Source of the DNA: Melioribacter roseus
GTDB taxonomy: Bacteria; Bacteroidota; Ignavibacteria; Ignavibacteriales; Melioribacteraceae
DNA: 48,892 bases
Direction: 5' to 3'
Assembly: GCA_020723165.1 (NCBI GenBank)
Contig: DYJK01000011.1
Location: 1 to 48,892, forward strand
Both the position numbers and the translations under genes were made by a program. The notes below the pieces were generated by a model. That model did no database searches, was not told where the DNA came from, and saw only the letters and a list, made by a program, of their open reading frames with translations. Shown in pieces: positions 27,635 through 42,705 of this stretch (positions within the stretch are counted from its first letter, which is position 1; every line of letters begins with the position of its first letter).

Positions 27635-30600
27635 TCAGTGGTACTTTTGTACCAATATTTTCTTAATTGAGTTGGATGTTATATCAAGTGTAATCGAATT
27701 ATTTTCTACTTCGATACTATTAATACTTTCACCGAGATAATTGATCTCGAACACTTTTGATTTAGAGAACAACAACTCAGAAGTAAGCTTTACTTCTTGT
27801 TTGCTATCTACGTTGCTGTTTTGTAAAGTCAATTCGTATAAACTATTTTTATAATCTACCGGTCTTATCGAAACAATTTTTACATTTGAATTTGACGAAC
27901 TCAAAAACTGTTGAACCGGTTCATCTTTTTTATACCAGCTTCTTCTAACAACCGGTTCGGTAGTTGTTTCCAACCCAAATGCTGTTATATCAGGATCAGT
28001 TTTATTTACACACGTAATACTGAATTTAAATTCCGGACTGCCGGTTTTATCCTCGTTTCTATTCCACCCTTCGGGGAAATTATTGAGAACATTCGCAATC
28101 AAAATATTTCTGTTATTTAACGTATCGAGAACAAAAATCCGGCAGTCGGCGGAGGCTACCATGAAGAAACCTTTAGAGTTTTCAATTCCTATCGATCTTC
28201 TAACCGGCATGAAGTTATGCCCGACAGCTTTGAAGCGGTCATCGATTGAAGTTAAACCGCCTAAAGTTTCAAACAAGACTTTTCCTTTCCCGGTATTGAA
28301 TGCAAAAGGAAGTCCATACTCCTCTGTGTAGTCTGTTTCTTTTAACGCATGTAAGTTTGTCTGTAAAGCAACATCAATCTTGTTTTGATTCTTCCACAAC
28401 CTGAACTTGATAACGCTGAATAATTCGTCTTGATATTTGAAGACAATTTCTTCAAAGACAGAATTCTTTTCTGCATGAGGATTCTGAAGTTTCCCGGTTA
28501 TTGGTAAAAATTTCTCGTTTAGCTGGAATCTTTTCCGTACCGGGACGAAGGAAGTTAATTTAGAATCATTATCAAGTATGTTCTCTCCTGAGAATTTTTC
28601 AATGATTGATAAACCGGTTCCATCAAATCTAATTTTGAAATAATCATTCTCTATTTCGTTATCCCCATCGGTTTTATCAACAGATGCAGTTGGCGAATTA
28701 ACAAGCTGATATTGTTTGTATCCAATGCCCGGTACATTTTCGGCAATAAAGTAAAGCTTGGTTCCATTTCTATATGAAACAACTTTTTTATTACTGGAAA
28801 GATCAATTACATCATAGTTATTCAAATCGGTTTGAGACAGTTCTATTTCAACCGGCATTGTACGGTTCCATGAAAGTGTGTTGAATACAATCATTCCGTG
28901 CGAGTCGAAACTTTCCTTTGGGGCAGTTAATCTATACGCTATTCTTTCCAGCAATTCTTCAGTTTTTAAATAAGCATCATCCACATAATCGTTCCGGAAT
29001 TCTTCGGTAATCACATTCTCTTGTTTCGTGCCGAAACCATATTCAAGTCCGCTGCCGTGCCCGGCATAATTAAGCAGTCTGTTATAGATAAAATCTATTT
29101 CATCGCTAAAAGAATTATCTCCCGGATTTTGTATCGAAGAAAATGTTGATAAAATCTCGGCGGATGGAAGATGATTTTGTATCCATCTATACATAAGCAT
29201 TCGTTTGGTTTCACCTTGAAAAAGAACGTCCCAGTCGGAAGTCCAATCTCCCCGGACAACTTTAAGTGAATTCAATTTCTCTTTGTATAGTTCTTTACAG
29301 AAATCATTCAACGTTGATACAACAAACCTGGGATATTCGTATTCGTCATTCCACGTTAGAGCGTTGTTATATTGATTGAGAGCGATTCCGCTGTTATCTG
29401 AAAAAGCGCCGCTGATTAGAATTTTTGTGAAAGGATATTCACGCTGAATAATATTATTGACACGGTGCCATATTCTGTAAGCAATTGAATTGACATCGCG
29501 TTCGAGTCCGTACCGCGAACCTTCGACGTATGCCTCGGTTAAGTAGAGCGGAATAGTATCGTTATTGGAGCCGGCCCAATTAAAAACTTTCGGCAGACTT
29601 TTCTGGAATTTATAATCTGCATATAATTCATTTATACCATCAACAAGAACTTTGACGCCGGCTTTTTTCAATGCTTGCGGCAAAGCCCATGACTGCCCAG
29701 GAACATCGTTGTAAAGAGCACCGAAATATTCTATTCCATATTTCTTTTTATACTTTTCGGCAAGCCTGAAACTCTCTGTCATTTCTGTTTCACTAATCCA
29801 TCCCGTAAAGGGATTTGAATAAATGGGTGAAACCGCAACCGTTCCTCTTTTTATTAATTCAATTAATTTGTCAAACTTTTCTTTTGATCTCGATTGACTA
29901 TAATTATCAAGCAGCCACATCGTTTCGATAGTCCACCTGAAATTTTTATCCGACTCACATTTTTCAATTACCTGGTCGAGAGTTTTAAGTTGTCTTTCAA
30001 TAACTACCGGTTGTGGATTGGTATAGCCGATATCCATATGTGTGGTAGGCATAAAGTAGAGTTCATATTTTGGTAATGCTTTCAGCTCAATTTTCTTATC
30101 TAAAGAAATATTTTGCAGAATTAATTTTGCATCAACTGCCGCAATTGTTTCCGGTTCAAGCAAATATATTTCTCTTTGATTAATACCTATCCCGATATTT
30201 TCGAAAGAAAATTCGTACTCATTATTATTGTACTCGAATAAAAGCTCCGCGGAAGAATTCTGTTCAATAGAAGAATTTATTTCGACAAAATATTTCTGTT
30301 TTATTTTATCATCAATCTTTTTGTAAAAGAATGACGGGGTGATTTTAAAATCAGGATTGATTTTCCCTTTATCAACTGAAATTGAAATACCTTTCAACGC
30401 TTCATCATCCAACCCGGTTAGTCTGCAATAGAAACCCCACTCATACCAGATCGGGTCCCAAAATGCAGCCGAGTGATTCTTATGTGTGTTTGCAATCTTA
30501 ATTAATAATCTATTCTCACCTTTCCGAAGTGTAACTGTATCGGAAAAATTATCTTTTACCGAATTGATCTCCTTCAATGACTTATAAATATTATCGCCAT

Positions 30601-31039
30601 TAAAAGTAATCCCGGTTACTGTATTTCCTCCAAATTTAATTTTGACTTTTTGCTCTTCGCCGGAATAGATTTTTGCAAATGCATAAATAATTTTCACATA
30701 CCAAACTTTTTCCGTGGTATTAAAGGTTTTCCAACCGTAATGCTCATTCAAATCCGTTAAGCCATTCTCTTTAGTACTTAAATAACACCATTCTGTAATA
30801 CCTTTTTCAACTGAAAGATTCTTTTGTGATATTCCGTATTCAGGACTTGCATGAATTTCATCTATCGCTTGTTCATCAGATAGATCACCAAATCCTACAG
30901 TTCTAATTTCAAACGGACCGTTGGTAAGCCACACCGGAATAATTCCATCCGGCTTTAATTCGATACGTGTCTGCCCGGCAATATCGGAGACAAATATTAA
31001 TCCAGTTACAACGAGAATATTTATAAACTGGTTTTTCAT
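27635..31039 (-). CDS. Secreted GH38-family alpha-mannosidase
   Basis: A 1134-residue exported enzyme (signal MKNQFINILVVTGLIFVSDIAGQ). Residues about 25-320 are an N-terminal beta-rich extension with a galactose-binding-like segment (LRKGENRLLIKIANTHKN). The GH38 barrel then starts: MPTTHMDIGYTNPQPVVIE (His334, Asp336), YNDVPGQSWALP (probable nucleophile Asp445), and NYAGHGSGLEYGFGT near residue 660. Sandwich domains follow to the end. It resembles the cytoplasmic GH38 at 15722-18376 in its H-x-D-x-GYT-x-x-QP motif but is longer and exported. It lacks a T9SS tail, so it is probably periplasmic. Its ATG overlaps the previous stop (ATGA, 31036-31039). Confidence 0.88.
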   Translation of the reverse strand: MKNQFINILVVTGLIFVSDIAGQTRIELKPDGIIPVWLTNGPFEIRTVGFGDLSDEQAIDEIHASPEYGISQKNLSVEKGITEWCYLSTKENGLTDLNEHYGWKTFNTTEKVWYVKIIYAFAKIYSGEEQKVKIKFGGNTVTGITFNGDNIYKSLKEINSVKDNFSDTVTLRKGENRLLIKIANTHKNHSAAFWDPIWYEWGFYCRLTGLDDEALKGISISVDKGKINPDFKITPSFFYKKIDDKIKQKYFVEINSSIEQNSSAELLFEYNNNEYEFSFENIGIGINQREIYLLEPETIAAVDAKLILQNISLDKKIELKALPKYELYFMPTTHMDIGYTNPQPVVIERQLKTLDQVIEKCESDKNFRWTIETMWLLDNYSQSRSKEKFDKLIELIKRGTVAVSPIYSNPFTGWISETEMTESFRLAEKYKKKYGIEYFGALYNDVPGQSWALPQALKKAGVKVLVDGINELYADYKFQKSLPKVFNWAGSNNDTIPLYLTEAYVEGSRYGLERDVNSIAYRIWHRVNNIIQREYPFTKILISGAFSDNSGIALNQYNNALTWNDEYEYPRFVVSTLNDFCKELYKEKLNSLKVVRGDWTSDWDVLFQGETKRMLMYRWIQNHLPSAEILSTFSSIQNPGDNSFSDEIDFIYNRLLNYAGHGSGLEYGFGTKQENVITEEFRNDYVDDAYLKTEELLERIAYRLTAPKESFDSHGMIVFNTLSWNRTMPVEIELSQTDLNNYDVIDLSSNKKVVSYRNGTKLYFIAENVPGIGYKQYQLVNSPTASVDKTDGDNEIENDYFKIRFDGTGLSIIEKFSGENILDNDSKLTSFVPVRKRFQLNEKFLPITGKLQNPHAEKNSVFEEIVFKYQDELFSVIKFRLWKNQNKIDVALQTNLHALKETDYTEEYGLPFAFNTGKGKVLFETLGGLTSIDDRFKAVGHNFMPVRRSIGIENSKGFFMVASADCRIFVLDTLNNRNILIANVLNNFPEGWNRNEDKTGSPEFKFSITCVNKTDPDITAFGLETTTEPVVRRSWYKKDEPVQQFLSSSNSNVKIVSIRPVDYKNSLYELTLQNSNVDSKQEVKLTSELLFSKSKVFEINYLGESINSIEVENNSITLDITSNSIKKILVQKYH

Positions 31040-32931
31040 TTGATAAAAACCATCTTCTTAGTTTCGCGTTTACCCGATGTTTCTAAAGAATAGAAATAAA
31101 CACCGCTGCTCAAGTTGTGAGGTTCCCAGCTTGTTTTGTATCTGCCGGCTAATAATGTTTTTGAATCGATCAAAGTTTTCACCACTTCACCAAGAGAATT
31201 ATAAATTTTAAGGCTCACTTCGGAAGTCATACCAAGTTCAAACTCTATAAGCGTTACTGGGTTGAAAGGGTTCGGATAATTTTGTAACAGTCTGTAAGCT
31301 GCCGGTAATTCTGTTTTCTCTTTTATGCCGGTTTGATTTTCGTTAATTGACAATTTTATAAACCGTGGTCTGTAGATATCGGCTATGTTAATATTTTCCG
31401 AAAAGCTTAGAGTGTTTACATTGTAACTTATCAACAAAGAATTATCATCCGAAAGTGACGGGTGTGCTTTGGCATTGTAAACAAAAACGTTGCTTGATAT
31501 CTGGACTTCCGGGCATTGATAGATTTCATTGTAAAAATCAAAAGGTCCAACCGGCGATTCACCAAAACGAACTGCGACAGAAGAACCAATCTGGCAAACA
31601 AGTAAATATTTATCATCTATTTCAGTAATACTGAATTCCTGGGAAATTTGATCCGTAATAGAGGCACACGAAGAAAAATCATTAGTCCATTCATTCCCGT
31701 TCCAGAATTGCCATTTATCAAATTCCATAAATTCTTCCGGCAAAACTCTGCTTGCAATTAATTTTTTCCCATTGCTGCTATCGCGAGGTCCGTACACATA
31801 AATATACCCGTCATAATTCTTGTTACCGCTTACTTCCGTATTCGGCAATATTGCCTGACCAAGAATTGTTGTATTGTTACTATCAGTTAAGAAAAATGGA
31901 AAATCCGTCTGTGTTATATTTTCAGGATAATAATTATCAGACAAGGTAAAAGAGATTATTACAGTTCCATTAATTTCAAAATCGAAAGCACCGTTTCCGG
32001 TAATTTTTAAGCGGAGGGAAAAAACATGTATTGTATCACCTATCTTAATTCCATCCATCAGCCAGTAAAAATCATTTGCCGTTGCCGAAGAGGTTGCCGG
32101 AACAAAAACAGCTTTTGGAGAAGACCCGTTTTGATTCCACATGAATGTAATACTGTCTTCAACCGGTTGATTCCCTTTTAAATATGCCAGCGTATTATTG
32201 ACAATTGTTGTATTGATTCTTTTTCCGGAAGCATCAACGTTCCCGATAAAAGTATCGCTGAATAAAATTAGATGATCTTGTCCGCCCGGTTTTTCACTTT
32301 CATCCATTGGGATTGAATAAATTCCATCAGCACCAGTCCATCCCGATTTTCTATTAAACAACGAATCCCATTCATCGGCTTTTTCAACTTTGAATTTATC
32401 TTCGCAAGTTGTTCCGTTAGGTACAGAAATATTATTAGGGTAAGAGAACGGGGCCCAGCTGCTCTGCCCGGAACAAATTAATCCCGATGTTGCTTTGCTT
32501 ACAAGGTAACCCAATTTAAAACATCCTTCCGTCATCCCGGTTCTCAATCTTAGTTCGATATCAACATCAACTGCATTCGTATATGTATAACCATTGTCTG
32601 AGACCAGGCAGATCCAATTCATATTTCCTTCAAAACTGTTAGAAGGATAACATGCCTCAAGTGAGTCTTTCCATTCATCATTAATTAACAGACTGCCCGA
32701 TCCCAACGAGCAAGAATAAGTTCCGCCAATCACTTCCCAATCTTGCGGAAGTAAAATTCCAATTAACCCTTTGTGAGGATTTGTCTCCGGTACATCGCTT
32801 GCTGTTACGTTTATATTCACAACTATTTCGGAATTGGTATCAGCCGATACCGGTTGTGTTATATTCGTTATTTTACACCCGCTAATTATTACCGGCATAA
32901 TTATCATCAATAAATTTTTAACATATTTCAT
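31036..32931 (-). CDS. T9SS-tailed surface lipoprotein: DWE/GTY domain plus DUF4185-like propeller
   Basis: A 631-residue exported protein. The signal has a lipobox IISGC (Cys19). Residues about 25-175 are the same domain as in the 281-residue protein at 26764-27609 (GILLPQDWEVIGGTYSCSLG, LRLRTGMTEGCFKLGYLVSK). Residues about 185-540 form a DUF4185-like propeller: GADGIYSIPMDESEKPGGQ, LFSDTFIGN, FYWLMDGIK, YIYVYGPRDSSNGKKLIASR, ESPVGPFDFYNEIYQ, and AKAHPSLSDDNSLLISYN. The end is a T9SS tail (YRLLQNYPNPFNPVTLIEF, SGVYFYSLETSGKRETKKMV). It is probably displayed on the cell surface, binding or trimming glycan. Two bases separate it from the PorV-like gene upstream. Confidence 0.83.
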   Translation of the reverse strand: MKYVKNLLMIIMPVIISGCKITNITQPVSADTNSEIVVNINVTASDVPETNPHKGLIGILLPQDWEVIGGTYSCSLGSGSLLINDEWKDSLEACYPSNSFEGNMNWICLVSDNGYTYTNAVDVDIELRLRTGMTEGCFKLGYLVSKATSGLICSGQSSWAPFSYPNNISVPNGTTCEDKFKVEKADEWDSLFNRKSGWTGADGIYSIPMDESEKPGGQDHLILFSDTFIGNVDASGKRINTTIVNNTLAYLKGNQPVEDSITFMWNQNGSSPKAVFVPATSSATANDFYWLMDGIKIGDTIHVFSLRLKITGNGAFDFEINGTVIISFTLSDNYYPENITQTDFPFFLTDSNNTTILGQAILPNTEVSGNKNYDGYIYVYGPRDSSNGKKLIASRVLPEEFMEFDKWQFWNGNEWTNDFSSCASITDQISQEFSITEIDDKYLLVCQIGSSVAVRFGESPVGPFDFYNEIYQCPEVQISSNVFVYNAKAHPSLSDDNSLLISYNVNTLSFSENINIADIYRPRFIKLSINENQTGIKEKTELPAAYRLLQNYPNPFNPVTLIEFELGMTSEVSLKIYNSLGEVVKTLIDSKTLLAGRYKTSWEPHNLSSGVYFYSLETSGKRETKKMVFIK

Positions 32932-32933
32932 TT

Positions 32934-33875
32934 TTAGAAAGATATTCCCACTGTGAATCTATGAATGTCGTCGAATACGATTTCCGACTTAACAAATGAA
33001 TAATCTAGTTTAAGGTTTATACCGCTTACACTTGGAGATACCACACCAAACCCGACTGAAAGTTTACCCTCATCAGTATTGAGCCGGTAACCGCCGCGCA
33101 GAAAGAAATAATCGTACAATTTTAATTCTGTACCAACGTTTACTATTTCAACGTTATCAGTAGAGTGAACCAATTCCACAGCTGCTGTTAAACTTGATTC
33201 AGTCCATTCAAATATTTCATCGGTTGCATTAAGACGGAACAGAAGAGGAGTCCTATATTCTTGATCAACCATTTTCATATCCGGACCAAAATGCTGGAGT
33301 GAAAAGCCAAGCCGCAGATTTCTGAAACCGGTGTAATATAAAGCGCCAATATCGAATAAAACATTATCGATGCTGTAATCATCAAGTTTTTCGTGAACAT
33401 ATTTTACTTGTCCGCCTATAGAAAGATGATCTGTAAACATTTTTGCAGCAGCAATACCTATCACAACATCACCGGCGCTTACCATTCTGCCGGTGCCATC
33501 AGGATCTGTAACGGTTGTTTCTTCAAATTCATTTATTGCAAATGATACAGCACTTACTGCAATACTAAAATCTTCAAAGGGAATTGCTAACGCAGCAGCA
33601 ATCTCTTTGCTATCCACAAGCCAGTTATTATGCGAAAATGTTGCCTGGTAATCCGTTATGTATGCCAGCCCGGCCGGATTCCAAAAGACAGCATTAACAT
33701 CTTTCACAGATGCAATAACAGCTTCGCCCATTGCACTTTCCCTTGCACCAATACCAATTTTCAAAAATTGCAAACCGGCGGACCCGGTCTTGGCAAAATC
33801 AAAACCATAATCGTATTGTGCATGTAGTATGCTTGATGATAAGAGTATTAATGTAAGTATTACTTTTCGTTTCAT
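32934..33875 (-). CDS. PorV/PorQ-family outer-membrane protein
   Basis: A 313-residue beta-barrel protein with signal MKRKVILTLILLSSSILHAQ. The family signature is near the N-terminus: KTGSAGLQFLKIGIGARESAMGEA followed by VKDVNAVFWNPAGLAY. The rest is alternating strands (LSIGGQVKYVHEKL, LRLGFSLQHFGPDMK, FFLRGGYRLNTDEGKLSVGFG) with a terminal aromatic (RFTVGISF). PorV shuttles T9SS cargo to the surface attachment complex. This copy lies between a T9SS cargo/FN3 protein and a T9SS-tailed propeller, downstream of a TonB receptor, so it may be a dedicated carrier or structural partner for this locus rather than the housekeeping PorV. Confidence 0.88.
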   Translation of the reverse strand: MKRKVILTLILLSSSILHAQYDYGFDFAKTGSAGLQFLKIGIGARESAMGEAVIASVKDVNAVFWNPAGLAYITDYQATFSHNNWLVDSKEIAAALAIPFEDFSIAVSAVSFAINEFEETTVTDPDGTGRMVSAGDVVIGIAAAKMFTDHLSIGGQVKYVHEKLDDYSIDNVLFDIGALYYTGFRNLRLGFSLQHFGPDMKMVDQEYRTPLLFRLNATDEIFEWTESSLTAAVELVHSTDNVEIVNVGTELKLYDYFFLRGGYRLNTDEGKLSVGFGVVSPSVSGINLKLDYSFVKSEIVFDDIHRFTVGISF

Positions 33876-33883
33876 AATTTTTT

Positions 33884-35695
33884 CTATTTAATTATCAATA
33901 ATGTACCTTTAGTATTGCCTACAGCCGATTCAACGGTCCAGAAATAAATGCCCGGTGCTATTCTCTGGCGTGCATCAGTAAGCTGATTCCAGGTTTCCTC
34001 GCCGGACAGTTGGCTGTTGTGTTCCATTGTTTTTATTAATTCACCGTTGCTTGTGTAGATCCTAACTTTGCAAACTGCCGGAAGGTTCGTCCACACAATC
34101 GAATTTTCTGATCCGCTTACCGGGAAGCCCGAAACTATTTTGAATGGATTCGGAAAAACTTTTACATTCAATACATTCTCTGCCGGGTTCCTGATTGCAT
34201 AAACGGGTTCTTCATTTCTATTAGTTAAGCCGCTTTCATTACCATCTTTATCAACCGAAGTAACAGCATAAAAATACCCGGCGCCAAGACTGATTGTTCC
34301 GTCTTCAACACTCCACCTATTATTTTCGGCATCATAATAACGGGTTACGTCTGTTGCCCGGCTCGGACGAACTGTTTTAATTAAGTTATAGGGACCAATG
34401 AAAGATAAGCTGCTTCTGTAAACTCGGTATTCATAAAAATCATTTGTACTATTAAACGGATCGATCCAATTTTCTTCGACCGGGTTCCAATTTATTGTGA
34501 CCGACTGTTTTTCAGGAACCGGGATAATTTCTACCGATGGCGACGGAGGCGGAAGTATTTCAACCACATAATTATCGGCATAAATACTTTTAGCTTTTAC
34601 GATCGATTCCTTTAGTAAATTTTCTCCTTTATATAATAACGATTGCGATGATAAACCATTTAAAGCATCTTTGAGTGATATACCGTCAACAGCTTCAACA
34701 AGAACAACCTTAACCGAACCGTTCGCTTCAATATCATAAGGACCGGCAGCCATAAGCATAAAAGGTGAAAGATGATCGGTTTCAGCAGCTTGCAATGTTT
34801 TATCTTCCCCGGATAAAATCTTGTACATATTTGCCGCCGAACTGCTGGTAAGAGTAAAATATCTCTCGTTATTTAATAACTGTGCATAGAATACATTTGC
34901 CGGCTGAGGAATATTATTTTTGGCTGTGCTCGCATCAACAAGTGCATAACCGGCATAACCGGTTGTTCTTAATTCATTTTTATCATCCCAATAATTTCCT
35001 ACATCACCGGGCAAAGAATAATTTGGTGTATCATCGTACGAATAGAGTAATTTGTTTTCAGCATCATATTTTACATAATCATCGGTGCGGTTAAAATCAT
35101 CGCCCCAGCCGTTATGAACAACAAAATCCTGGTAGCTTGGCCTTATTAAATACGGAAATCCAAAATATACATCGGTAACTTTCGCAGCATTTTTATTTGT
35201 AAATAGATATTCAATAAGAATAAAATTATTACTGCCCGGGTAGCTCCATGCACGGCTTGTTCTCTTCACTTCGATATTTTCAGTTGTGGTAAGGGTAACG
35301 TTAATGATTTGCTCTGCTTCGTTGGGATTGAATGTAGCACTCTCAATATAGTTATCGGTTCTATCAAGAAGCGTGAAAGTACCTCTATCAATATTTAAGA
35401 ATGGTCCGTTTTCAGTTAGGAATAAATTTCCGTTTGAATGGTATCCTCCGATCCACAGACCGGCTCCAAGCATGTATGATCTTTGATCATCTTTCAACAT
35501 TTCATTTGGTCCGCCGGGCCAATCCATGCTTGGGAAATACTTAAAACGATTGGTCGGATCAGCCGAGCCGATCGTGCCATCATCTTTCATTGTTTCCCAA
35601 AGAATTCCTCTATCATGAATTTTAAATTCTGCTGTTCTTGATTGACCAAAGATCAACAGCGGGATAAAGAGAATTAATAATATTTTCGATTTCAT
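33884..35695 (-). CDS. T9SS type A sorting-domain surface protein with fibronectin-like domain
   Basis: A 603-residue exported protein (signal MKSKILLILFIPLLIFGQ). The first 370 residues (RGILWETMKDDGTIG, DWPGGPNEMLKDD, MLGAGLWIGGYH, VKRTSRAWSYPGSNNFILIE, FGFPYLIRPSYQDFVVHN) form a family common in Ignavibacteria-like genomes that I cannot name. A fibronectin type III-like domain follows at about 385-500 (VTINWNPVEENW, YEYRVYRSS, YFYAVTSVDKDGNESGLTNR). The C-terminus is a T9SS/FlgD-like tail (VFPNPFKIVSGFP, PGIYFWTVESAVGNTKGTLL). It occupies the place where SusD would sit after a SusC-type receptor, 18 bases after the TonB-receptor stop, so a substrate-binding surface partner is a reasonable inference. 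Confidence 0.8.
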   Translation of the reverse strand: MKSKILLILFIPLLIFGQSRTAEFKIHDRGILWETMKDDGTIGSADPTNRFKYFPSMDWPGGPNEMLKDDQRSYMLGAGLWIGGYHSNGNLFLTENGPFLNIDRGTFTLLDRTDNYIESATFNPNEAEQIINVTLTTTENIEVKRTSRAWSYPGSNNFILIEYLFTNKNAAKVTDVYFGFPYLIRPSYQDFVVHNGWGDDFNRTDDYVKYDAENKLLYSYDDTPNYSLPGDVGNYWDDKNELRTTGYAGYALVDASTAKNNIPQPANVFYAQLLNNERYFTLTSSSAANMYKILSGEDKTLQAAETDHLSPFMLMAAGPYDIEANGSVKVVLVEAVDGISLKDALNGLSSQSLLYKGENLLKESIVKAKSIYADNYVVEILPPPSPSVEIIPVPEKQSVTINWNPVEENWIDPFNSTNDFYEYRVYRSSLSFIGPYNLIKTVRPSRATDVTRYYDAENNRWSVEDGTISLGAGYFYAVTSVDKDGNESGLTNRNEEPVYAIRNPAENVLNVKVFPNPFKIVSGFPVSGSENSIVWTNLPAVCKVRIYTSNGELIKTMEHNSQLSGEETWNQLTDARQRIAPGIYFWTVESAVGNTKGTLLIIK

Positions 35696-35713
35696 AGTTT
35701 GTTCTATTTTATT

Positions 35714-38704
35714 TTAAAAACTGTATCTAATACCGAAATAGATTTTTCTTGTATCAAAGTAATTCTGCCAGCTTATATCATAACCATCCGCATCAACCGT
35801 AGAAATAGTACCTTTCTCTATATAATTCTTTGTTGCCTCGCTGTCGAATAATATATCACCGTACGTTCGTAGGTTTTTTTTGTTCAATAAATTTGTTATT
35901 TGCATATAAACTGACATGAGGTGTCCATCCAAAAGTGCAATTTGTTTTTCGATCTTCACATCGATTGTATGGATTGCCGGGAAACGATAATTATTATATG
36001 TATCAGGCGGATCGGTTGCTTGAAGATATGTAAAAGCTTGTCCACTGAAATAGTTGAACAGAATACTGAGATTTGTTCCCATAAATATATTATCGATAAA
36101 ATCTGGGTTAGTGACGTTGGGGTACTTAATAAAGGTATTTACACGTAAAATGTGTGGACGTGAAAAACTTTTTTCAACCGGTATTCTTTTATTAACATCG
36201 GAATCCCATGCATAAGTAACATTTCCTTCGTTATCATAACGAATTATACTCGGCGTTGCCCTTCCTTCCGTAGCGCGCGAAAAACTATAATTAATATCAA
36301 AAAAGATTATGCTGCTGAATAATGTTCGTATCGAAATTTCAAATCCTCTAGAATCGCCGTAATCACCAGATAAAAAAGTTTGGTAAGAATTATTTGGCGT
36401 AGTAACATTGTTAAACGGGTCCCATCCGTATATATGGTGATCGAATAAACCGATCCGTTCCGAAGTTTGATTGAAAACATCTTTATAATAAGCAGTAACA
36501 TCAACCACGGCAATCCCTTCAAAGTTCTGTTTAATGCCGGCTTCGAACATTATTGTTTTTTCCGGTTTCAAAGATTCGTTTGTAAAAGTAACAACTCTTT
36601 CGGCATCGCCATCGTTAGAAGCAATATGTTTTGGTTCTCTTCCTTCAGCGGCTGCGGCAGCAGCTTCTGCTACCATTTTATTAACTATATATAACGGTCT
36701 GAAATAACCGAGTTCGAACATTTGATCAAGAGGAGGCATCTGGTAATAATGACCATAATTAAAATGTAACAATGTATTTTCTGTAATCGGGAAAGAGACA
36801 CCGAATCTCGGGCTGAACATATGATACGCTTCTGCTGCTTTTCTCGGTTTATCCAATAAGTTATTAAAAGAATATTTAACATTACCGTTGCTATCTATTT
36901 GATCTTTGTCCGGGTCCAGTGTTGAATTATAATCAGCGTTAATTGCAAGGTTATACAAATTTGTTTTTTCGAACCAATCGTAGTTTGGATTAAAGTAGTC
37001 GTATCTCAATCCAACATTTAAGATCATACTTTCAAATTCCATTTTATCCTGGATATAAAAAGCTGCCTGGATAGGATGATACGTTTCCATCAATCCTCTA
37101 TTCAGCCACAATGATTTATCCATCGTGTAAGATGGCAGTCTATAATTTTCTTTTTCATCGTAAGTGTTGTAGCGGAATTCAAAACCGCTTTTAAGTAAAT
37201 TATTTTTATCGAACTGCCAATTGATATTACCAACCAATGAAACATCACCGGTAAGAATATCGTTAATAATAATAGGTGCATAATGATCAAACGGTTCGCT
37301 TTCATAGCTATCAAATCTTTGAAATCCCCAGATAGTTGGGTTCTGGCTTGAACCGAGTAATAAATATTCACCTGGTCCCTCTTTGAAATGCGACCAGTAA
37401 GTTCCGAGTTTGAGTTCGTAAAACAATCTTTCACTAAGAACCTGGGTAAAGTTGAAATTGAGAAAATATGTGTACGTATCAAGAAGCGAGCCCCATCCTC
37501 TATAGTACTTTGCCTGGTTTGTAAAATCACCATTCTCTTGCAAAGTTGAATGTGCATCATGGTTATAAAACCCGGTCAATTTCATTTTAATATTTTGGGG
37601 ACCATAAGCAAGATTGAATATTACATTTTCAGCATTTCTTGAATCGCGCGGATGCGGCAGAGTATAAGGTTGCTTTTTAAGTTGAGCTGAACTAAAAAAT
37701 GTTACCTTACTATCACCAATATTAAAAAGAGGTCCATCCAAACTGAAGTTGTAAGTGTAGTCTGGAATTTTTGTATAATCATATATCTGTGCTTTTCTTT
37801 CAGCAGTCCACCAATTTGGATCTAACGAACCATCCGGCAATGTATTATCTATAAATTCTTTCCCCGTTTTTGTATCATACAGATAATTACCAAAGTGATG
37901 CTGACCCGAAAGACCATAAATCATCTCAGCCGATCCGTGAAAATCATTTCCTCCTTCTTTGGAAACAATACTAACAATTCCTGATTGAGCTTCGCCGTAT
38001 TCGGCAGTAAAACCACCGGTCATTACCTGGACTTCTTTTATTGCGTTCAAATTAATGTTGGTGAAAGAACCGCCCCAATCAGCACGTCCTAATAATAAAT
38101 TGCTGACTCTTGCACCGTCTATGGACCATTTAACTTCATCCTGGTTACCACCGCGCACCGAATAACGATTTTCACCTTTCCCGGCCGAACCCAATCCGCC
38201 AGCAACCGGGATTGGATCGAAGAAAACGCCGGCTTGAACCATTAAACTTTGCTTTGCATCCCTTGATGGGAGTCTTTCAAATTCTCTTATCCCAATATTT
38301 TGAATGCTTGCTGTAACATCTTTTTGAATTACCGGCGCCTCGGCTGTAATAACAATTTCCTTGTTCAAAGAAATTGTCTCGTCTAGCATTTCAATATCAA
38401 TGCTCGTGGTTAAATCTACTTTCACAAAAACATTTTCAACAAAAACAGTTTGATAACCAATCATCGAAGCTTTAATTGTGTAGGTACCGGGCGGTATTTG
38501 TAGAATTATAAATTCGCCGTCCAAATCAGCAGCCGCACCGTTAGTAGTTCCAACCACAAGCACATTAACACCAGGTAAAGGCAAGCCGGTATTTTTATCG
38601 ATTACAGTACCTTTAATTTTACCGGTGGTTCCGGCAAATAATATTCCAGTGCCTATCAATAAATAGAAAATTAAAAATGCCTTAATAGAATTAACTTTTC
38701 TCAA
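35714..38704 (-). CDS. TonB-dependent receptor with carboxypeptidase-like regulatory domain
   Basis: A 996-residue outer-membrane receptor. I start it at the TTG 38702-38704, which follows GGAGG with proper spacing and gives signal MRKVNSIKAFLIFYLLIGTG ending LFAG. Residues about 27-110 are the carboxypeptidase-D-like domain (GKIKGTVIDKNTGLPLPGVN, ADLDGEFIILQIPPGTYTIK). The plug follows: RYSVRGGNQDEVKWSIDGAR, LNAIKEVQVMTGGFTAEYGE, SGIVSIVSKEGGNDFHG. The C-terminal barrel ends in RKIYFGIRYSF. It takes up a ligand with TonB energy, presumably an oligosaccharide. No SusD gene follows; instead come a T9SS surface protein and a PorV-like protein. A run of six alanines (VAEAAAAAAEGREP) lies in one loop. 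Confidence 0.93.
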   Translation of the reverse strand: MRKVNSIKAFLIFYLLIGTGILFAGTTGKIKGTVIDKNTGLPLPGVNVLVVGTTNGAAADLDGEFIILQIPPGTYTIKASMIGYQTVFVENVFVKVDLTTSIDIEMLDETISLNKEIVITAEAPVIQKDVTASIQNIGIREFERLPSRDAKQSLMVQAGVFFDPIPVAGGLGSAGKGENRYSVRGGNQDEVKWSIDGARVSNLLLGRADWGGSFTNINLNAIKEVQVMTGGFTAEYGEAQSGIVSIVSKEGGNDFHGSAEMIYGLSGQHHFGNYLYDTKTGKEFIDNTLPDGSLDPNWWTAERKAQIYDYTKIPDYTYNFSLDGPLFNIGDSKVTFFSSAQLKKQPYTLPHPRDSRNAENVIFNLAYGPQNIKMKLTGFYNHDAHSTLQENGDFTNQAKYYRGWGSLLDTYTYFLNFNFTQVLSERLFYELKLGTYWSHFKEGPGEYLLLGSSQNPTIWGFQRFDSYESEPFDHYAPIIINDILTGDVSLVGNINWQFDKNNLLKSGFEFRYNTYDEKENYRLPSYTMDKSLWLNRGLMETYHPIQAAFYIQDKMEFESMILNVGLRYDYFNPNYDWFEKTNLYNLAINADYNSTLDPDKDQIDSNGNVKYSFNNLLDKPRKAAEAYHMFSPRFGVSFPITENTLLHFNYGHYYQMPPLDQMFELGYFRPLYIVNKMVAEAAAAAAEGREPKHIASNDGDAERVVTFTNESLKPEKTIMFEAGIKQNFEGIAVVDVTAYYKDVFNQTSERIGLFDHHIYGWDPFNNVTTPNNSYQTFLSGDYGDSRGFEISIRTLFSSIIFFDINYSFSRATEGRATPSIIRYDNEGNVTYAWDSDVNKRIPVEKSFSRPHILRVNTFIKYPNVTNPDFIDNIFMGTNLSILFNYFSGQAFTYLQATDPPDTYNNYRFPAIHTIDVKIEKQIALLDGHLMSVYMQITNLLNKKNLRTYGDILFDSEATKNYIEKGTISTVDADGYDISWQNYFDTRKIYFGIRYSF

Positions 38705-38766
38705 AGTTGCCTCCAACAATCAACAATTGTTTATTCTTAACGATTGTGTGCAAAGAACCAGAAAAA

Positions 38767-38782
38767 AACTGTTGAAACAGTT
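38767..38782. repeat. REP-like palindrome 1
   Basis: AACTGTT-GA-AACAGTT is a perfect inverted repeat with seven-base arms. It lies in the 188-base gap between the ABC permease and the TonB receptor and resembles palindrome 3 at 38851-38870 with a changed central arm base. Confidence 0.7.
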
Positions 38783-38803
38783 ATTAAAATAAATTCAGTT
38801 TTT

Positions 38804-38833
38804 ATTAACCCACGGCTTAAGCCGTGGGTTAAT
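38804..38833. repeat. REP-like palindrome 2, perfect 30 bases
   Basis: The arm ATTAACCCACGGCTT at 38804-38818 is followed directly by its exact reverse complement at 38819-38833, with no spacer. It is far more G+C-rich than its surroundings. It could form a hairpin (terminator-like) or be a dispersed REP element mobilised by a TnpA-REP-type transposase encoded elsewhere. A run of A residues (38838-38844) follows it on the plus strand. Confidence 0.8.
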
Positions 38834-38850
38834 GGATAAAAAAAGAACCT

Positions 38851-38870
38851 TAAACCGTTTCAACGGTTTA
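38851..38870. repeat. REP-like palindrome 3
   Basis: TAAACCGTT-TC-AACGGTTTA is a perfect inverted repeat with nine-base arms. Together with the two palindromes before it, it fills most of the intergenic region between the permease operon and the TonB receptor. That makes this gap a likely transcription boundary on the minus strand. Confidence 0.75.
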
Positions 38871-38892
38871 CAAGTTAATTCACACAATCAAT

Positions 38893-39717
38893 TCATTCTT
38901 TTATTCCGCTCATCGTAAAACCTTTTATAAAATATTTCTGGAAGAAGAAAAAGATCACGATAACCGGAAGCATCATTAATACTGATGCCGCCATTAAAAT
39001 TGCCCATTCCGGCTGCTGCTGACCGGCAAGTTGTCCTAAACCCAAGGCAAGAGTTCCTTTAGCTTTGTCCGATAAGTAAATCAATGGACCAAGAAAGTCA
39101 TTCCATACAAACATAAACGTCATTATTGCTACGGTAGCCAGTGCCGGTTTAGCTAAAGGCAGAACAATCTTCCAATAGATTTTAAACTCAGAACAACCGT
39201 CAATGCGTGCAGCATCTAAAAGACTTTTAGGAACAGACATAAAAAATTGCCGCATCAAAAAAATATTAAACGCACCGCCGCCTAGAAACATTGGGATAGT
39301 TAAAGGTTTGAAAGAATTAAGCCAGCCGATCTCTTTGAAGATTACAAATATTGGAATCATAGTAACTTGAATCGGCAGCATCATAGTTGCAACAACAACA
39401 TAAAACAGAGCATTTCTTCCCGTCCATTCTATACAACTGAAAGCATAACCTACAATAGAACTCGACAGTACAATGCCAATTACAGCAACAGAGGTTATAA
39501 AAACAGAATTTTGAAGATATTGCAAGAAAGGAATTTTATTAAACAGTTTTACATAATTATCAAGTTGAATTGCACTTGGCAAAAAATTATTTGAGAAAAC
39601 TTCAGCTTCGGGTTTTACAGAGGTAAGTATAATCCATAAAAATGGCAGAATAAAAAAGATGGCAATCATTGTCATCAGAATAAATATGAAATAATTATTT
39701 CTTTTTTGTCTTGTCAT
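38893..39717 (-). CDS. Sugar ABC transporter permease, MalG/UgpE type
   Basis: A 274-residue inner-membrane permease. I start it at ATG 39715-39717, which overlaps the upstream permease stop (ATGA), instead of ten codons further upstream. The first helix is FIFILMTMIAIFFILPFLWIILTSVKPEAEVF, typical of MalG-like proteins, and five or six helices follow. The ATPase-contact EAA loop is VPKSLLDAARIDGCSEFKIYWKIVLPLAKPALATV, with the conserved E/D-A-A-x3-G pattern as DAARIDG. It pairs with the MalF-type permease at 39714-40607 and the binding protein at 40604-41935 to form an importer. The ATPase is one of the two UgpC copies. The imported substrate is a carbohydrate of unknown identity. Confidence 0.93.
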   Translation of the reverse strand: MTRQKRNNYFIFILMTMIAIFFILPFLWIILTSVKPEAEVFSNNFLPSAIQLDNYVKLFNKIPFLQYLQNSVFITSVAVIGIVLSSSIVGYAFSCIEWTGRNALFYVVVATMMLPIQVTMIPIFVIFKEIGWLNSFKPLTIPMFLGGGAFNIFLMRQFFMSVPKSLLDAARIDGCSEFKIYWKIVLPLAKPALATVAIMTFMFVWNDFLGPLIYLSDKAKGTLALGLGQLAGQQQPEWAILMAASVLMMLPVIVIFFFFQKYFIKGFTMSGIKE

Positions 39718-40607
39718 TTCTCTACACCGCCGCTGTAAAAAACCCATTTCTTACTAACCTTGAACTGGATAAAAGTTATAATCCCGCTGATAATAAAAAG
39801 TAACCATGCAAGTGCGGAAGCATATCCCATATCAAAATCGTCGAATGCTTTATTATAGAGATATAGATTGTAAAATAATGTTGAATTGAGCGGCCCTCCC
39901 TTGGTCATAATGTAAGCTTCAACAAAAACCTGGAGAGAAAAAATCATCTCAAGTATAAACCAGAGAAATAGAACGGGCGAAATAAAAGGAACGGTAACAT
40001 TTTTAAATTTAGCCCACCATCCTCCACCGTCAATTTCGACAGCTTCGTAAAACTGTTTTGGCACATTTTGTATAGCCGCTAAAAATACCAGCATCCTTCC
40101 GCCTCCTAGAGACCAGATGCTCATCAATATAATAGATGGTTTTGACCAGTTTGGATCAATTAACCACAGCGGACCCTGGATTCCAAAAAATTGCAGTGTG
40201 CTATTAATTAATCCATATTCGGGATTAAGCAACCACATCCACAGCACGGATAATATTACACCGGAAATGATTGATGGGATAAAATAAATTGTCCGGAATA
40301 TTTTAACACCAGTTACAGCTTTACTTACAATAACTGCAAGGATCAGAGAACCAAGTATAACAAGAGGAGTTCTGACAAAAGTATAGAAAAGTGTATTCCA
40401 TATTGTTGTATAGAAGTATTGGTCCTCAAATAATAATTCCTTGTAATTTCTTAATCCGATATATTGGGGAATGCGCAGCACATCATACTGGCACAAGCTA
40501 TAATAGAATGAAACAATTATCGGGTACAAACCAAAAACGAGAAATCCAACAATCCACGGCGAAGCGAAAAGGTATCCCCAAAAATTATTTTTAGTTTTAA
40601 CTTTCAA
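39714..40607 (-). CDS. Sugar ABC transporter permease, MalF/UgpA type
   Basis: A 297-residue permease beginning MKVKTKNNFWGYLFASPWIVGFLVFGLYPIIVSFYYS, the usual start of UgpA-like proteins. Six helices are expected. The EAA loop is VPKQFYEAVEIDGGGWWAKFKNVTVPFISPVLF (EAVEIDGG). The start is a TTG in a TTGA overlap with the binding-protein stop (40604-40607), and its own stop overlaps the next permease by four bases. All three genes are therefore translationally coupled. The conserved late segment EAYIMTKGGPLNSTLFYNLYLYNKAF matches the family. It forms the channel with the MalG-type permease. Confidence 0.93.
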   Translation of the reverse strand: MKVKTKNNFWGYLFASPWIVGFLVFGLYPIIVSFYYSLCQYDVLRIPQYIGLRNYKELLFEDQYFYTTIWNTLFYTFVRTPLVILGSLILAVIVSKAVTGVKIFRTIYFIPSIISGVILSVLWMWLLNPEYGLINSTLQFFGIQGPLWLIDPNWSKPSIILMSIWSLGGGRMLVFLAAIQNVPKQFYEAVEIDGGGWWAKFKNVTVPFISPVLFLWFILEMIFSLQVFVEAYIMTKGGPLNSTLFYNLYLYNKAFDDFDMGYASALAWLLFIISGIITFIQFKVSKKWVFYSGGVEK

Positions 40608-41935
40608 TCAAAGAATCCTTCCGTTTTCATTTTAGAGTTGACATAATTGTCATAATCTATTGCCCTATCAAGAAAAGATTGAATAGTTTTTTCAGCTTGC
40701 TTCAATGCTTGTTTTGCCGTTGTTATATTTCTTAAAGATTGTTCCCTTGCAAAAGAGAATTCGCGCCAGAAGATATCATGAGCTAAAGGAATAATCGATT
40801 TTGTTCTTGTTTGTTCCATTTGTTCGGTAAAAATTTTCATGTACTTATTCATTGATAAAAATGCCGGGTCGTTGGCAGCAAAGCGGTTAACCGGGAACAA
40901 TGTTTCATCGCGACTCATACTTTCTTTTAATTGTGTTTCCCGGCTCACAACAAATTTCATAAACTCCCATGCTGCATTTTTGTTTTTTGCCCCTCTCGGA
41001 ATTGCAAGCCACCAGCTCCCGGCAGAAGAAACGGATGGTAAATCATCCATGGTAGGTATTAATGCAACGCCGTAATCAAGATCGGGTTTATACTTTTTTA
41101 TTTGATCAATAAAACTATTATCATTAACCAGCATTGCTACTTTTTCGGAAATGAAACCATGTTGATTTCCGTATCCAAATCCTCCCATGAATGCCGTAAC
41201 TTCCTCCACAGAATAAACATCAAAAAAATCATGTTCCCACTGGAATGCCTTTTCAATCAAAGGATCGTTAAGCTTAACTTTTGTTCCATCATCACTAATA
41301 AATTTAGCCCCTAGTTCAAACGCAATTATGAGCGGTGTTTCTATCGTACCATATTGCGGCACAAAACCCATTCTAACAATTTTTTTGTTTTCCCTTTTCA
41401 AAATTTTTCTTGAATATTCTTTAACTTCATCCCACGTTCTAGGTGGTTTCTCAGGATCGAGCCCGGCTTCCTCAAAAATTTTTTTATTATAGAACAATGA
41501 ATAGGCACCGGTATAAGCCGGAAGTGCATAAATGTTATTCCGGTATTTCATTTCACCCCATAGCGATGAAAAAAATTGATTTGTGTCTAATTTATCCTTG
41601 TAAATAATATCATCAAGGTTAATGAGTGCCTTACGAGCTGCCCATTTGGGAACCGGCGTTACAAGATTAACTACGTCGGGCGGGTTCTCGCTTAATATTG
41701 CTGTGAGTACTTTCTTTTCATGTTCATTCCATGGAATTGGAGTACATTCAACATGGATGCTATCTTGGGATTGATTGAATAACTCTACACATGGTGGGAT
41801 ATCATCTTTAACACCGGCAACAAACCAATAATTTACTACATTTTTTTCTTTCTCAACTTTACCTGGTAGTAATAGAATCAGAATTAAAGTCGATAGAGAA
41901 AGACCGATAACTATTTTTATTAATTTGTTTTTCAT
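40604..41935 (-). CDS. ABC transporter sugar-binding protein (family 1), membrane-anchored
   Basis: A 443-residue extracellular solute-binding protein. The N-terminus (KNKLIKIVIGLSLSTLILILLLPG) is hydrophobic but has neither lipobox cysteine nor clear signal peptidase site, so it may stay as a membrane anchor. Family landmarks are VNYWFVAGVKDDIPPCVELF, LSENPPDVVNLVTPVPKWAA, the ALPAYTGAYSLFYNKKIFEEAG block, PPRTWDEVKEYSRKI, and GSWWLAIPRGAKNKNAAWEF near residue 310. It binds a sugar in the periplasm and delivers it to the permeases just downstream. The start is ATG 41933-41935; a TTG one codon earlier is also possible. The regulator gene lies 29 bases upstream. Confidence 0.92.
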   Translation of the reverse strand: MKNKLIKIVIGLSLSTLILILLLPGKVEKEKNVVNYWFVAGVKDDIPPCVELFNQSQDSIHVECTPIPWNEHEKKVLTAILSENPPDVVNLVTPVPKWAARKALINLDDIIYKDKLDTNQFFSSLWGEMKYRNNIYALPAYTGAYSLFYNKKIFEEAGLDPEKPPRTWDEVKEYSRKILKRENKKIVRMGFVPQYGTIETPLIIAFELGAKFISDDGTKVKLNDPLIEKAFQWEHDFFDVYSVEEVTAFMGGFGYGNQHGFISEKVAMLVNDNSFIDQIKKYKPDLDYGVALIPTMDDLPSVSSAGSWWLAIPRGAKNKNAAWEFMKFVVSRETQLKESMSRDETLFPVNRFAANDPAFLSMNKYMKIFTEQMEQTRTKSIIPLAHDIFWREFSFAREQSLRNITTAKQALKQAEKTIQSFLDRAIDYDNYVNSKMKTEGFFD

Positions 41936-41964
41936 CAATTCGGGTTTACGGATGATGAATAATT

Positions 41965-42705
41965 CTATTTTTTTGATCGTTCTATTTCAATAGAATACGT
42001 AAATCTTTCTGCGTTGTAATATCCAATATTAAATTCAACCGGTCTCTTTCCCGGATCATAAACAAATCTTTTTCTATAGAGGATTGGATCACCGGAATTA
42101 ATTTTTAATTTTTTTGCAATCAGTTTGTCGGCTACCATAGCACGAATTTCTTCTTTGGAAACCGAAACTACGGTATGATAATCTTCTTCGAGAGTATGAT
42201 ATAATGGTTTGGAAAAATCTTCATTACCTTTTAAACCTATCCTGGGGTGAAAATAAGAAGTGAAATAAACTATCGGACATTCTTCCATTCCTCTCAAACG
42301 ATCCATCTTTAACACAAGTTTATCTTTAGATATACCAAAAAATTCTGCAACTTCTTGTGGTGGTTCTACCCACTCGACTGAAATATCAATATTCTGAAAT
42401 AGAATACCTTTCTCATTCATTTCTTGTGTAAAACTAAGCCAGCTATCAAGTCTGGTAGTAACAGTTTTCTTATCCGCTACTTTTGTACCTATTCCTTTCT
42501 TTCGAACAATTAATCCTTCGTGTACAAGTTTGTTTGTTGCTTGCCGAACCGTATTTCTTGATATGCCGAGTCTCTTTGCTAAGTCAACTTCATTAGGGAG
42601 AAATTTTCCACCGCTGTACTCGGGTTTGTGAATCAGCTCGCGAAGAAGTTGTTCTACCTGGGCATGAAACGGTATTGCACTGTGATGGTCAATTTTGCTA
42701 GTCAT
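41965..42705 (-). CDS. GntR-family transcriptional regulator with UTRA domain (HutC subfamily)
   Basis: A 246-residue regulator started at ATG 42703-42705 behind GAGG. Residues 1-75 are the GntR winged helix: PFHAQVEQLLRELI, then FLPNEVDLAKRLGISRNTVR and the wing GLIVRKKGIGTKVA. Residues about 95-240 are the UTRA effector domain (FFGISKDKLVLKMDRLRGME, ITYFTSYFHP-like VYFTSYFHPRIG, LKINSGDPILYRKRFVYD). HutC-type regulators commonly sense sugar phosphates or amino-sugar phosphates and repress transport operons. It heads the binding-protein/permease operon, and a near-perfect palindrome lies just upstream of its start, so autoregulation is likely. Confidence 0.94.
   Translation of the reverse strand: MTSKIDHHSAIPFHAQVEQLLRELIHKPEYSGGKFLPNEVDLAKRLGISRNTVRQATNKLVHEGLIVRKKGIGTKVADKKTVTTRLDSWLSFTQEMNEKGILFQNIDISVEWVEPPQEVAEFFGISKDKLVLKMDRLRGMEECPIVYFTSYFHPRIGLKGNEDFSKPLYHTLEEDYHTVVSVSKEEIRAMVADKLIAKKLKINSGDPILYRKRFVYDPGKRPVEFNIGYYNAERFTYSIEIERSKK

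What the first reader, a model, noticed from the sequence alone, without database searches (positions are those of the whole stretch)
32934..38704. TonB receptor without SusD, followed by a T9SS surface protein and a PorV-like protein
Receptor, FN3/T9SS protein and PorV-family protein are packed within 20 bases of each other, in the place where Bacteroidetes loci carry susC-susD. The trio may be an alternative surface uptake complex in which a T9SS-delivered protein replaces the SusD lid and PorV anchors it.
Basis: partly seen in the sequence, partly recalled or inferred. Interest (0 to 1): 0.6.

Follow-up and report, generated by a model that had tools for sequence, protein, structure and literature searches.

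The report
SusD-free TonB receptor–T9SS–PorV cassette
A three-gene set, found again and again in soil, sediment and marine bacteria related to Bacteroidota, pairs an outer-membrane nutrient gate with a secreted surface protein and a small membrane barrel that probably holds it, and looks like an undescribed counterpart of the well-known SusCD sugar-uptake system.

Summary
On the minus strand lie a TonB receptor (start 38704, end 35714), a 603-residue type-9-secreted protein and a PorV-family barrel, with gaps of 18 and 8 bases. It is not a one-off. The genome carries about ten such trios and no detectable SusD. Of 80 named receptor loci chosen without regard to neighbours, 54 show the trio, 25 are cut by a contig end and one is rearranged. 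The taxa include Ignavibacteria, Calditrichota, KSB1, Latescibacterota, Marinimicrobia and WOR-3. The three genes co-diverge as cassettes (r about 0.9 among paralogues of one genome). The secreted proteins carry their own class of C-terminal sorting domain, recognised in 52 of 52 held-out cases. In the PDB it resembles only the uncleaved domains of PorU and PorZ, which PorV and PorQ hold on the surface. The N-terminal domain is predicted to be a beta-supersandwich like those of GH94/GH15-type sugar enzymes, without their catalytic barrel. Most likely each receptor has a dedicated PorV paralogue that delivers and holds a substrate-capturing surface protein, working like SusC–SusD but unrelated to it. 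Cassette: near certain. Tethering: likely. Lid function: plausible, untested. Ten literature searches found no description.

The parts
35714..38704 (-). TonB-dependent receptor (about 996 aa from the TTG with GGAGG; 1001 aa as longest ORF to 38719): CarboxypepD_reg N-domain, Plug, TonB-receptor barrel; contains EIVITA, a TonB-box-like motif (motif recalled)
   Evidence: SusC/RagA model TIGR04056 only 86.6 bits over the first 320 residues, cut-off 368
33884..35695 (-). T9SS-delivered surface protein, 603 aa, signal peptide of signal peptidase I type (LIFGQ), no lipobox
34562..35623 (-). N-terminal beta-supersandwich domain plus linker helix, residues 25-378 of the 603-aa protein (predicted)
   Evidence: AlphaFold2 model m0b570e8877d1 (mean pLDDT 71) against PDB: cellodextrin phosphorylase 8xi1_A Z 17.4, rmsd 3.9, 262 aligned, 7% identity
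34196..34534 (-). fibronectin-III-like domain, residues 388-500 (predicted)
   Evidence: secondary structure of the model; profile match to Fn3-like 3mpc, E 0.004
33887..34186 (-). trio-class T9SS C-terminal domain, residues 504-603
   Evidence: not found by PF18962
32934..33875 (-). PorV/PorQ-family outer-membrane barrel (FadL superfamily), trio group
   Evidence: NF033709 166.7 bits over cut-off 90; PDB PorV 6h3i E 4.9e-5; tree
31036..32931 (-). next gene: DUF4961/DUF4185 protein with lipobox and ordinary type A CTD; probable accessory surface protein of this locus
   Evidence: a counterpart follows the trio in the same-genus genome (L091 9561-11528)
27635..31039 (-). GH38-type alpha-mannosidase-like enzyme of the same run of genes
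38893..41938 (-). two ABC sugar-type permeases and a solute-binding protein upstream (possible inner-membrane step)
41965..42705 (-). GntR/UTRA regulator

Best explanation
The trio is one copy of a widespread, multi-copy cassette that works like SusC-SusD but is built from other parts. The TonB receptor is the energised import channel. The T9SS-delivered protein crosses the outer membrane through the SprA translocon. Its dedicated PorV paralogue recognises its special C-terminal domain, collects it, and then keeps holding it beside the receptor, instead of being recycled as ordinary PorV is. The sugar-enzyme-like supersandwich domain on the surface binds a ligand (here probably a mannose-rich glycan or its fragments) and hands it to the receptor; the ABC transporter upstream then takes it into the cell. 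Shown: conserved cassette, co-divergence, separate CTD class, no SusD detected in the genome, domain folds (predicted). Inferred: permanent tethering by PorV, contact with the receptor, ligand capture, the glycan.
For: Conservation: 54 of 80 named receptor loci (53 plus L165) carry receptor, CTD protein and PorV; 25 of the other 26 are cut by a contig end. 19 of 19 sampled CTD loci from other genomes are trios. In five genomes (one sampled in part) 31 of 56 PorV ORFs are in trios. Co-divergence among paralogues within genomes: r 0.90-0.92, 0 of 2000 within-genome permutations reach it. CTD class: 52 of 52 held-out trio CTDs favour the trio model and 76 of 87 other CTDs the ordinary one, most of the 11 exceptions being cut or rearranged trios; PF18962 finds 114 CTD stretches in the genome and none of the ten trio ones. 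The trio-CTD profile matches only PorZ and PorU in the PDB, while the ordinary-CTD profile matches cleaved substrates as well. 82 of 83 trio proteins lack a lipobox. Fold. SusD: 0. SprA_N and ExbD present. Setting: GH38, GH92, DUF4185, ABC and GntR genes.
Against: No physical interaction is shown. Co-divergence would also follow from joint inheritance of neighbours that do not touch. The PorU and PorZ matches are weak (E 0.005 and 0.0014), and CTDs of PorU from these very genomes favour the ordinary model (0 of 5 favour the trio model). A supersandwich fold does not show glycan binding. Some trios sit next to GWxTD and lipid A acyltransferase genes rather than sugar genes, so a glycan ligand is not general. 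Most neighbours of the other trios have no sugar-related Pfam label.
Confidence: 0.6

Rival explanations
1. The PorV paralogue is only a private secretion shuttle: it takes the T9SS protein out of the translocon and is then recycled; the protein is cleaved and fixed to lipopolysaccharide or released, and works beside the receptor (for example as a binding protein) without being held by PorV.
For: Ordinary PorV works in this way (PMC5562754 and PMC10994853 passages). Type A substrates of F. johnsoniae share one PorV (PMC12618676).
Against: One PorV gene per substrate in the same operon points to one-to-one use, as argued for SprF-like shuttles of type B CTDs (PMC12618676 passage). The separate CTD class is most like the uncleaved CTDs of PorZ and PorU.
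Confidence: 0.22
2. The receptor is not an importer but an export or assembly aid for its T9SS partner, in the way the Oar receptor is needed for secretion of PopC in Myxococcus.
For: The receptor has the CarboxypepD_reg domain and matches PF25183, a barrel family that I recall as Oar-like; PMC6434023 (search listing only) reports Oar-dependent secretion.
Against: The genome has SprA and about a hundred other CTD stretches, most of them not beside a receptor in the loci I read. Sugar-uptake and glycan-breakdown genes surround the window trio.
Confidence: 0.08
3. The cassette is a surface signalling or attachment device: the T9SS protein senses or binds a polymer and the receptor passes a signal or simply scaffolds it.
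For: Response-regulator and envelope genes occur among the neighbours.
Against: No signalling N-domain was found in the receptor; full plug and barrel are kept, with about ten diverged copies per genome, as expected of nutrient receptors.
Confidence: 0.07

Closest known systems
SusC-SusD (RagA-RagB) glycan and peptide importers of Bacteroidia
   Same: TonB receptor with an adjacent gene for a surface partner, many diverged copies per genome, often in glycan loci; CarboxypepD_reg-like N-domain
   Different: No SusD (0 matches); receptor far below the SusC model cut-off; partner is a T9SS cargo without lipobox and with a predicted beta-supersandwich instead of the helical SusD fold (SusD fold recalled); extra PorV barrel
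PorU-PorV and PorZ-PorQ of the T9SS attachment complex
   Same: Surface protein with CTD held by a PorV-family barrel (published tethering, PMC5562754 abstract and passages); trio CTD profile matches PorZ and PorU in the PDB
   Different: No sortase domain found; a TonB receptor is added; about ten copies per genome; PorVs of the PorU pairs form a separate group in the tree
SprF/PorP-like barrels with cognate type B CTD proteins (SprB-SprF, PG1035-PorP)
   Same: Dedicated FadL-family barrel per secreted protein, genes often adjacent, barrel holds the cargo (PMC9143113 discussion; PMC12618676)
   Different: Barrel belongs to the PorV family, not PorP (PF11751 17.9 bits, below 22.3); no type B CTD match; no TonB receptor there
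BamA-BamG-BamH of the Bacteroidota BAM complex
   Same: Large barrel plus a FadL-family barrel whose outer loops hold a surface protein (PMC12578637 and PMC12611786 passages)
   Different: Outer-membrane protein assembly, essential, no TonB receptor and no T9SS cargo
BtuB-BtuG and glycan utilisomes
   Same: TonB receptor with surface partners beyond SusD (starts of abstracts in a search listing only)
   Different: Partners are lipoproteins; no PorV

Membership tests
SusC-SusD system | SusD/RagB homologue as partner | tested here: not met
   PF07980 0 matches in the genome, control Bacteroides positive; PF14322 0 matches; other SusD models not run
SusC-SusD system | Receptor passes the SusC/RagA model TIGR04056 | tested here: not met
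   86.6 bits against cut-off 368.25, residues 34-320 only
SusC-SusD system | Surface partner is a lipoprotein | tested here: not met
   No lipobox in the 603-aa protein; 1 loose match in 83 trio proteins with complete N-termini
SusC-SusD system | Partner has the helical SusD fold (recalled) | tested here: inconclusive
   Model is beta-supersandwich + FN3 + CTD and SusD is not among listed matches; absence from the list is not proof
PorV/PorQ family (NF033709) | Score over the curated cut-off | tested here: met
   166.7 bits, cut-off 90, residues 33-313
PorV proper or PorQ proper (NF033710, NF033711) | Score over the equivalog cut-off | tested here: not met
   50 of 250 and 79.2 of 220 bits
T9SS type A sorting domain (TIGR04183, PF18962) | Score over the curated cut-off | tested here: not met
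   TIGR04183 16.6 of 23 bits; PF18962 gives no match for the protein and none at the ten trio CTDs of the genome among 114 hits
T9SS-delivered CTD proteins in the broad sense | C-terminal domain related to known CTDs, signal peptide, T9SS in the genome | tested here: met
   Profile match to PorZ and PorU CTDs, best NCBIfam match is the CTD part of PorU, SprA_N present; secretion itself not tested
PorU-PorV / PorZ-PorQ type tethering | CTD kept on the mature protein and bound to the barrel | not testable with these tools
   needs proteomics or a complex structure
PorP/SprF with type B CTD | PorP/SprF model over cut-off | tested here: not met
   PF11751 17.9 of 22.3 bits, TIGR03519 18 of 90.55
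Oar-type export receptor | Needed for secretion of a partner protein | not testable with these tools
   genetics needed

The most novel reading that the evidence does not exclude
[quoted passage not shown] It would be the main large-nutrient gate of Ignavibacteria, Calditrichota, KSB1, Latescibacterota and Marinimicrobia.
Probability: 0.45. Interest if true: 0.85.

Novelty: new variant of a known kind. Interest (0 to 1): 0.72.

Why it matters
Ignavibacteria and their relatives break down polymers, yet a survey finds susCD scarce in their sugar gene clusters (PMC10576277 passage), leaving open how large ligands cross their outer membrane. The trio is a concrete, testable answer. It also departs from the statement, made for Flavobacterium, that all type A CTDs use one PorV (PMC12618676): here there is one PorV paralogue beside each cargo of a special CTD class. 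Practically, the trio CTD model finds surface proteins that Pfam and NCBIfam miss, and gives a marker for uptake loci in lineages where SusD-based searches fail.

Tried and rejected
Type A CTD label from libraries: rejected as stated, since PF18962 and TIGR04183 miss or under-score these domains. 'PorU-like CTD' as a simple statement: weakened, because PorU and the short CTD proteins of the same genomes favour the ordinary CTD model (0 of 5 and 0 of 4 favour the trio model); only the PDB profile search and the sub-threshold NCBIfam match point to PorU/PorZ. A single clean clade of trio PorVs: the tree needs 3 label changes (shuffled mean 21.2), so nearly but not strictly one group, with a long-branch warning. 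A glycan role for all trios: not supported; one group of trios sits by GWxTD and lipid A acyltransferase genes. SusD fold or phosphorylase activity of the 603-aa protein: SusD did not appear in the fold list and the catalytic barrel that follows the matched domain in GH94 enzymes (recalled) is absent; absence from a fold list is not proof. Gene finding first hid PorV or receptor ORFs in L165, L174, L177, L180, L182 and L184; reading all frames restored them. The promoter scan was at chance level and the terminator scan close to it. Literature: ten searches used; none listed a paper describing the trio; subscription papers and preprints are mostly not in that library.

Counts and dropped rows: one search used 80 of 83 trios with long enough proteins; 34 of 35 chosen ordinary CTDs went into A6 (L124 dropped as off-register); 35 of 41 chosen trio CTDs went into A4 (L046, L078, L090, L109, L131 and L158 dropped as not ending at the CTD or as outliers), so A4 leans to typical members. 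In some searches the loci of G017 were left out as near copies of G000, and the control set of neighbours listed was not scanned. Of the 8 genomes, five were read around PorV genes (G017 in part). One search scores at most 16 candidates a genome, so its counts are lower bounds; many same-class genomes have only one hit at about 1e-15 to 1e-23, whose neighbourhood I did not check. The 19 loci were taken from the printed top of that list, not at random.
Full report
WHAT IS THERE. The window's minus strand carries, in transcription order, a TonB-dependent receptor (to 35714), a 603-aa protein (33884-35695) and a 313-aa PorV-family barrel (32934-33875), with 18 and 8 bases between them. The receptor's start at 38704 (TTG, five bases after GGAGG) is better than the longest-ORF start at 38719. 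Pfam finds CarboxypepD_reg, Plug and barrel domains in the receptor and nothing in the 603-aa protein. NCBIfam puts the third protein in the PorV/PorQ family at 166.7 bits (cut-off 90), but far below the cut-offs for PorV and PorQ proper. It gives the 603-aa protein only sub-threshold CTD matches, the best to the CTD part of PorU. Upstream are ABC sugar-type permeases, a solute-binding protein and a GntR regulator. Downstream are a DUF4961/DUF4185 protein, two GH38 enzymes and, further on, a GH92 enzyme, so the surroundings suit mannose-rich glycan use.

THE TRIO IS A CONSERVED, MULTI-COPY CASSETTE. The genome has 19 matches to the PorV family at E 1e-5, and seven relatives have 12 to 18. I fetched 55 stretches around such genes from five genomes and annotated them, with the window, using models built from the window's proteins. 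Of 56 PorV ORFs over 200 bits, 28 are in the order receptor-CTD protein-PorV, 3 in the order receptor-PorV-CTD protein, 2 beside a receptor in other ways, 10 behind a CTD protein without a receptor (5 of them PorU-PorV, 4 a short CTD protein with a tandem PorV pair, 1 a trio cut by the contig end) and 13 alone. The median gaps within 80 trios are 24.5 and 18 bases.

NAMED RELATIVES. A scan of genome contigs with a receptor alignment kept the best 80 of 560 relatives, chosen without regard to neighbours. Of the 80, 53 are trios by rule, one more (L165) when all frames are read, 25 end less than 5.5 kb beyond the receptor, and one (L155) has receptor and PorV together with the CTD protein upstream. 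Loci with the full trio include titles naming Ignavibacteria/Melioribacteraceae, Calditrichota, KSB1, Latescibacterota, Neomarinimicrobiota, WOR-3/Stahlbacteria and Delongbacteria; Balneolales and Zixiibacteriota loci are cut by the contig end. A few titles outside the FCB group (Planctomycetota, Deltaproteobacteria, Verrucomicrobia, Caldisericaceae) may be binning or labelling errors.

CO-DIVERGENCE. Over 80 trios the distances of receptor, CTD protein and PorV correlate at 0.89-0.93. Among paralogues of the same genome (84 pairs) they correlate at 0.922 (receptor-CTD protein), 0.904 (receptor-PorV) and 0.902 (CTD protein-PorV), and none of 2000 permutations within genomes reaches this. The trio thus duplicates and diverges as a unit. 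This fits a physical complex but does not prove one. In a tree of 110 PorV proteins the 87 trio rows need 3 label changes against 21.2 when shuffled.

A SEPARATE CTD CLASS. Models trained on CTDs of the five family genomes were tested on the named loci: 52 of 52 trio CTDs favour the trio model (median difference 74 bits) and 76 of 87 other CTDs favour the ordinary one. The 11 exceptions are mostly trio proteins at contig ends or in rearranged or misread loci (L116, L117 twice, L123, L132, L137, L145, L146, L148, L155, L165). In the window's own genome PF18962 finds 114 CTD stretches at E 0.01, none at the ten trio CTDs (positions). Ten trio-class CTDs agree with the ten trio PorVs if the T9SS gene cut at the end of C33 continues at the start of C178 (L044, L172; inference). 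Against the PDB, the trio-CTD profile matches only PorZ (5m11, E 0.0014) and PorU (6za2, E 0.005) below E 0.1. These are two CTDs that are not cleaved (PMC11285876 passages) and whose owners are held by PorQ and PorV (PMC5562754 abstract and passages). The control profile of ordinary CTDs matches cleaved cargo (8glj, 8glk, gingipain) as well as PorU. Against this, PorU CTDs of these genomes favour the ordinary model (0 of 5 favour the trio model), and the PDB matches are weak.

DISTRIBUTION. A search of 296 genomes of the phylum with the trio-CTD profile (E 1e-14) found it in 140: 17 of 17 of the own family (own genome included), 11 of 11 more of the order, 40 of 45 more of the class and 72 of the remaining 223 (group totals counted by me from its rows). 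Neighbourhoods of 19 hits from other genomes were read, taken from the top of the list: 19 of 19 are trios. SusD_RagB has 0 matches in the own genome and 1-3 in 33 of 79 family genomes. In the 17 family genomes present in both searches I count 142 trio-class CTDs (a lower bound) against 5 SusD matches. PF14322 also gives 0 in the own genome. A published survey notes susCD 'scarcely detected' in sugar clusters of Ignavibacteriales (PMC10576277 passage); the Melioribacter genome paper describes a SusCDE locus (PMC3534657 passages).

THE SECRETED PROTEIN. Of 83 trio proteins with complete N-termini, 82 have no lipobox, so unlike SusD they are not lipoproteins. AlphaFold2 of the 603-aa protein (19 sequences, mean pLDDT 71.1, pTM 0.64) shows an all-beta N-domain with a linker helix, an FN3-like domain and the CTD. 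Residues 25-378 match the N-terminal beta-supersandwich of GH94-type phosphorylases and kin (8xi1_A Z 17.4, rmsd 3.9, 262 aligned). A distant trio protein from KSB1 (L102, 1033 aa, 30 sequences, pLDDT 76.9) gives the same fold (dextran dextrinase 9ju0 Z 20.9, glucoamylase 1lf6 Z 19.6, galactose mutarotase 14.2). The catalytic (alpha/alpha)6 barrel that follows in those enzymes (recalled) is missing, so a binding role is more likely than catalysis. A shared fold shows no function.

MECHANISM. The genome has the T9SS translocon (SprA_N) and ExbD. Published structures show PorV loops gripping the CTD inside SprA and support exit together with it (PMC10994853 passages). Type A cargo shares one recycled PorV, whereas type B cargo has private SprF-like barrels, thought to be made in step with it and to hold it at its destination (PMC12618676 abstract and passages; PMC9143113 discussion). 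BamG holds BamH on the surface beside BamA (PMC12578637 and PMC12611786 passages). The trio transfers this private-barrel logic to the PorV family and adds a TonB receptor: the most economical reading is a SusC-SusD analogue with PorV as anchor. My estimates: functional unit about 0.95; tethering by the paralogue about 0.7; capture lid for the receptor about 0.55.

LIMITS. No complex prediction was possible, no substrate is known, neighbours of other trios vary (GH16 with malectin, GH88, esterase, ABC, but also GWxTD and lipid A genes), and co-inheritance is not contact. Ten literature searches found no description of the trio.

Noticed in passing
window 26767-27609 and 31039-32931; L091 9561-11528: Proteins with both a lipoprotein signal (lipobox Cys) and an ordinary T9SS CTD; the two in the window also match DUF4961. 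Only 3 of 118 non-trio CTD proteins show this. A lipoprotein routed through the T9SS would be unusual.
   Followed up: partly
window 38780-38880: The gap upstream of the receptor holds three inverted repeats in a row, including a 24-base palindrome AACCCACGGCTTAAGCCGTGGGTT and a terminator-like one.
   Followed up: no
L048, L060, L069, L080: Conserved block of a 527-532 aa CTD protein followed by two tandem PorV-family genes, without a TonB receptor, in four genomes; a different, unexplained PorV-CTD set.
   Followed up: no
L045, L067, L078 (also L158): A group of trios lies beside GWxTD-domain and lipid A acyltransferase genes (L045, L067 shown); in L078, L090 and L158 the CTD protein runs on past the CTD with an EQQ(I/V)LD(H/R)F tail.
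   Followed up: partly
L044 (C33 end) and L172 (C178 start): A trio protein cut at one contig end and a trio CTD at another contig start are probably halves of one gene in receptor-PorV-CTD order.
   Followed up: partly
L137, L163, L169, L134: Trio-like receptor and partner on contigs titled Planctomycetota, Deltaproteobacteria, Verrucomicrobia and Caldisericaceae; likely mislabelled bins, otherwise transfer out of the FCB group.
   Followed up: no
window 9914-31039: The locus holds two GH38 and one GH92 mannosidase-type genes, DUF4185 proteins and a ROK protein, suggesting a large mannose-glycan utilisation region without SusCD.
   Followed up: partly
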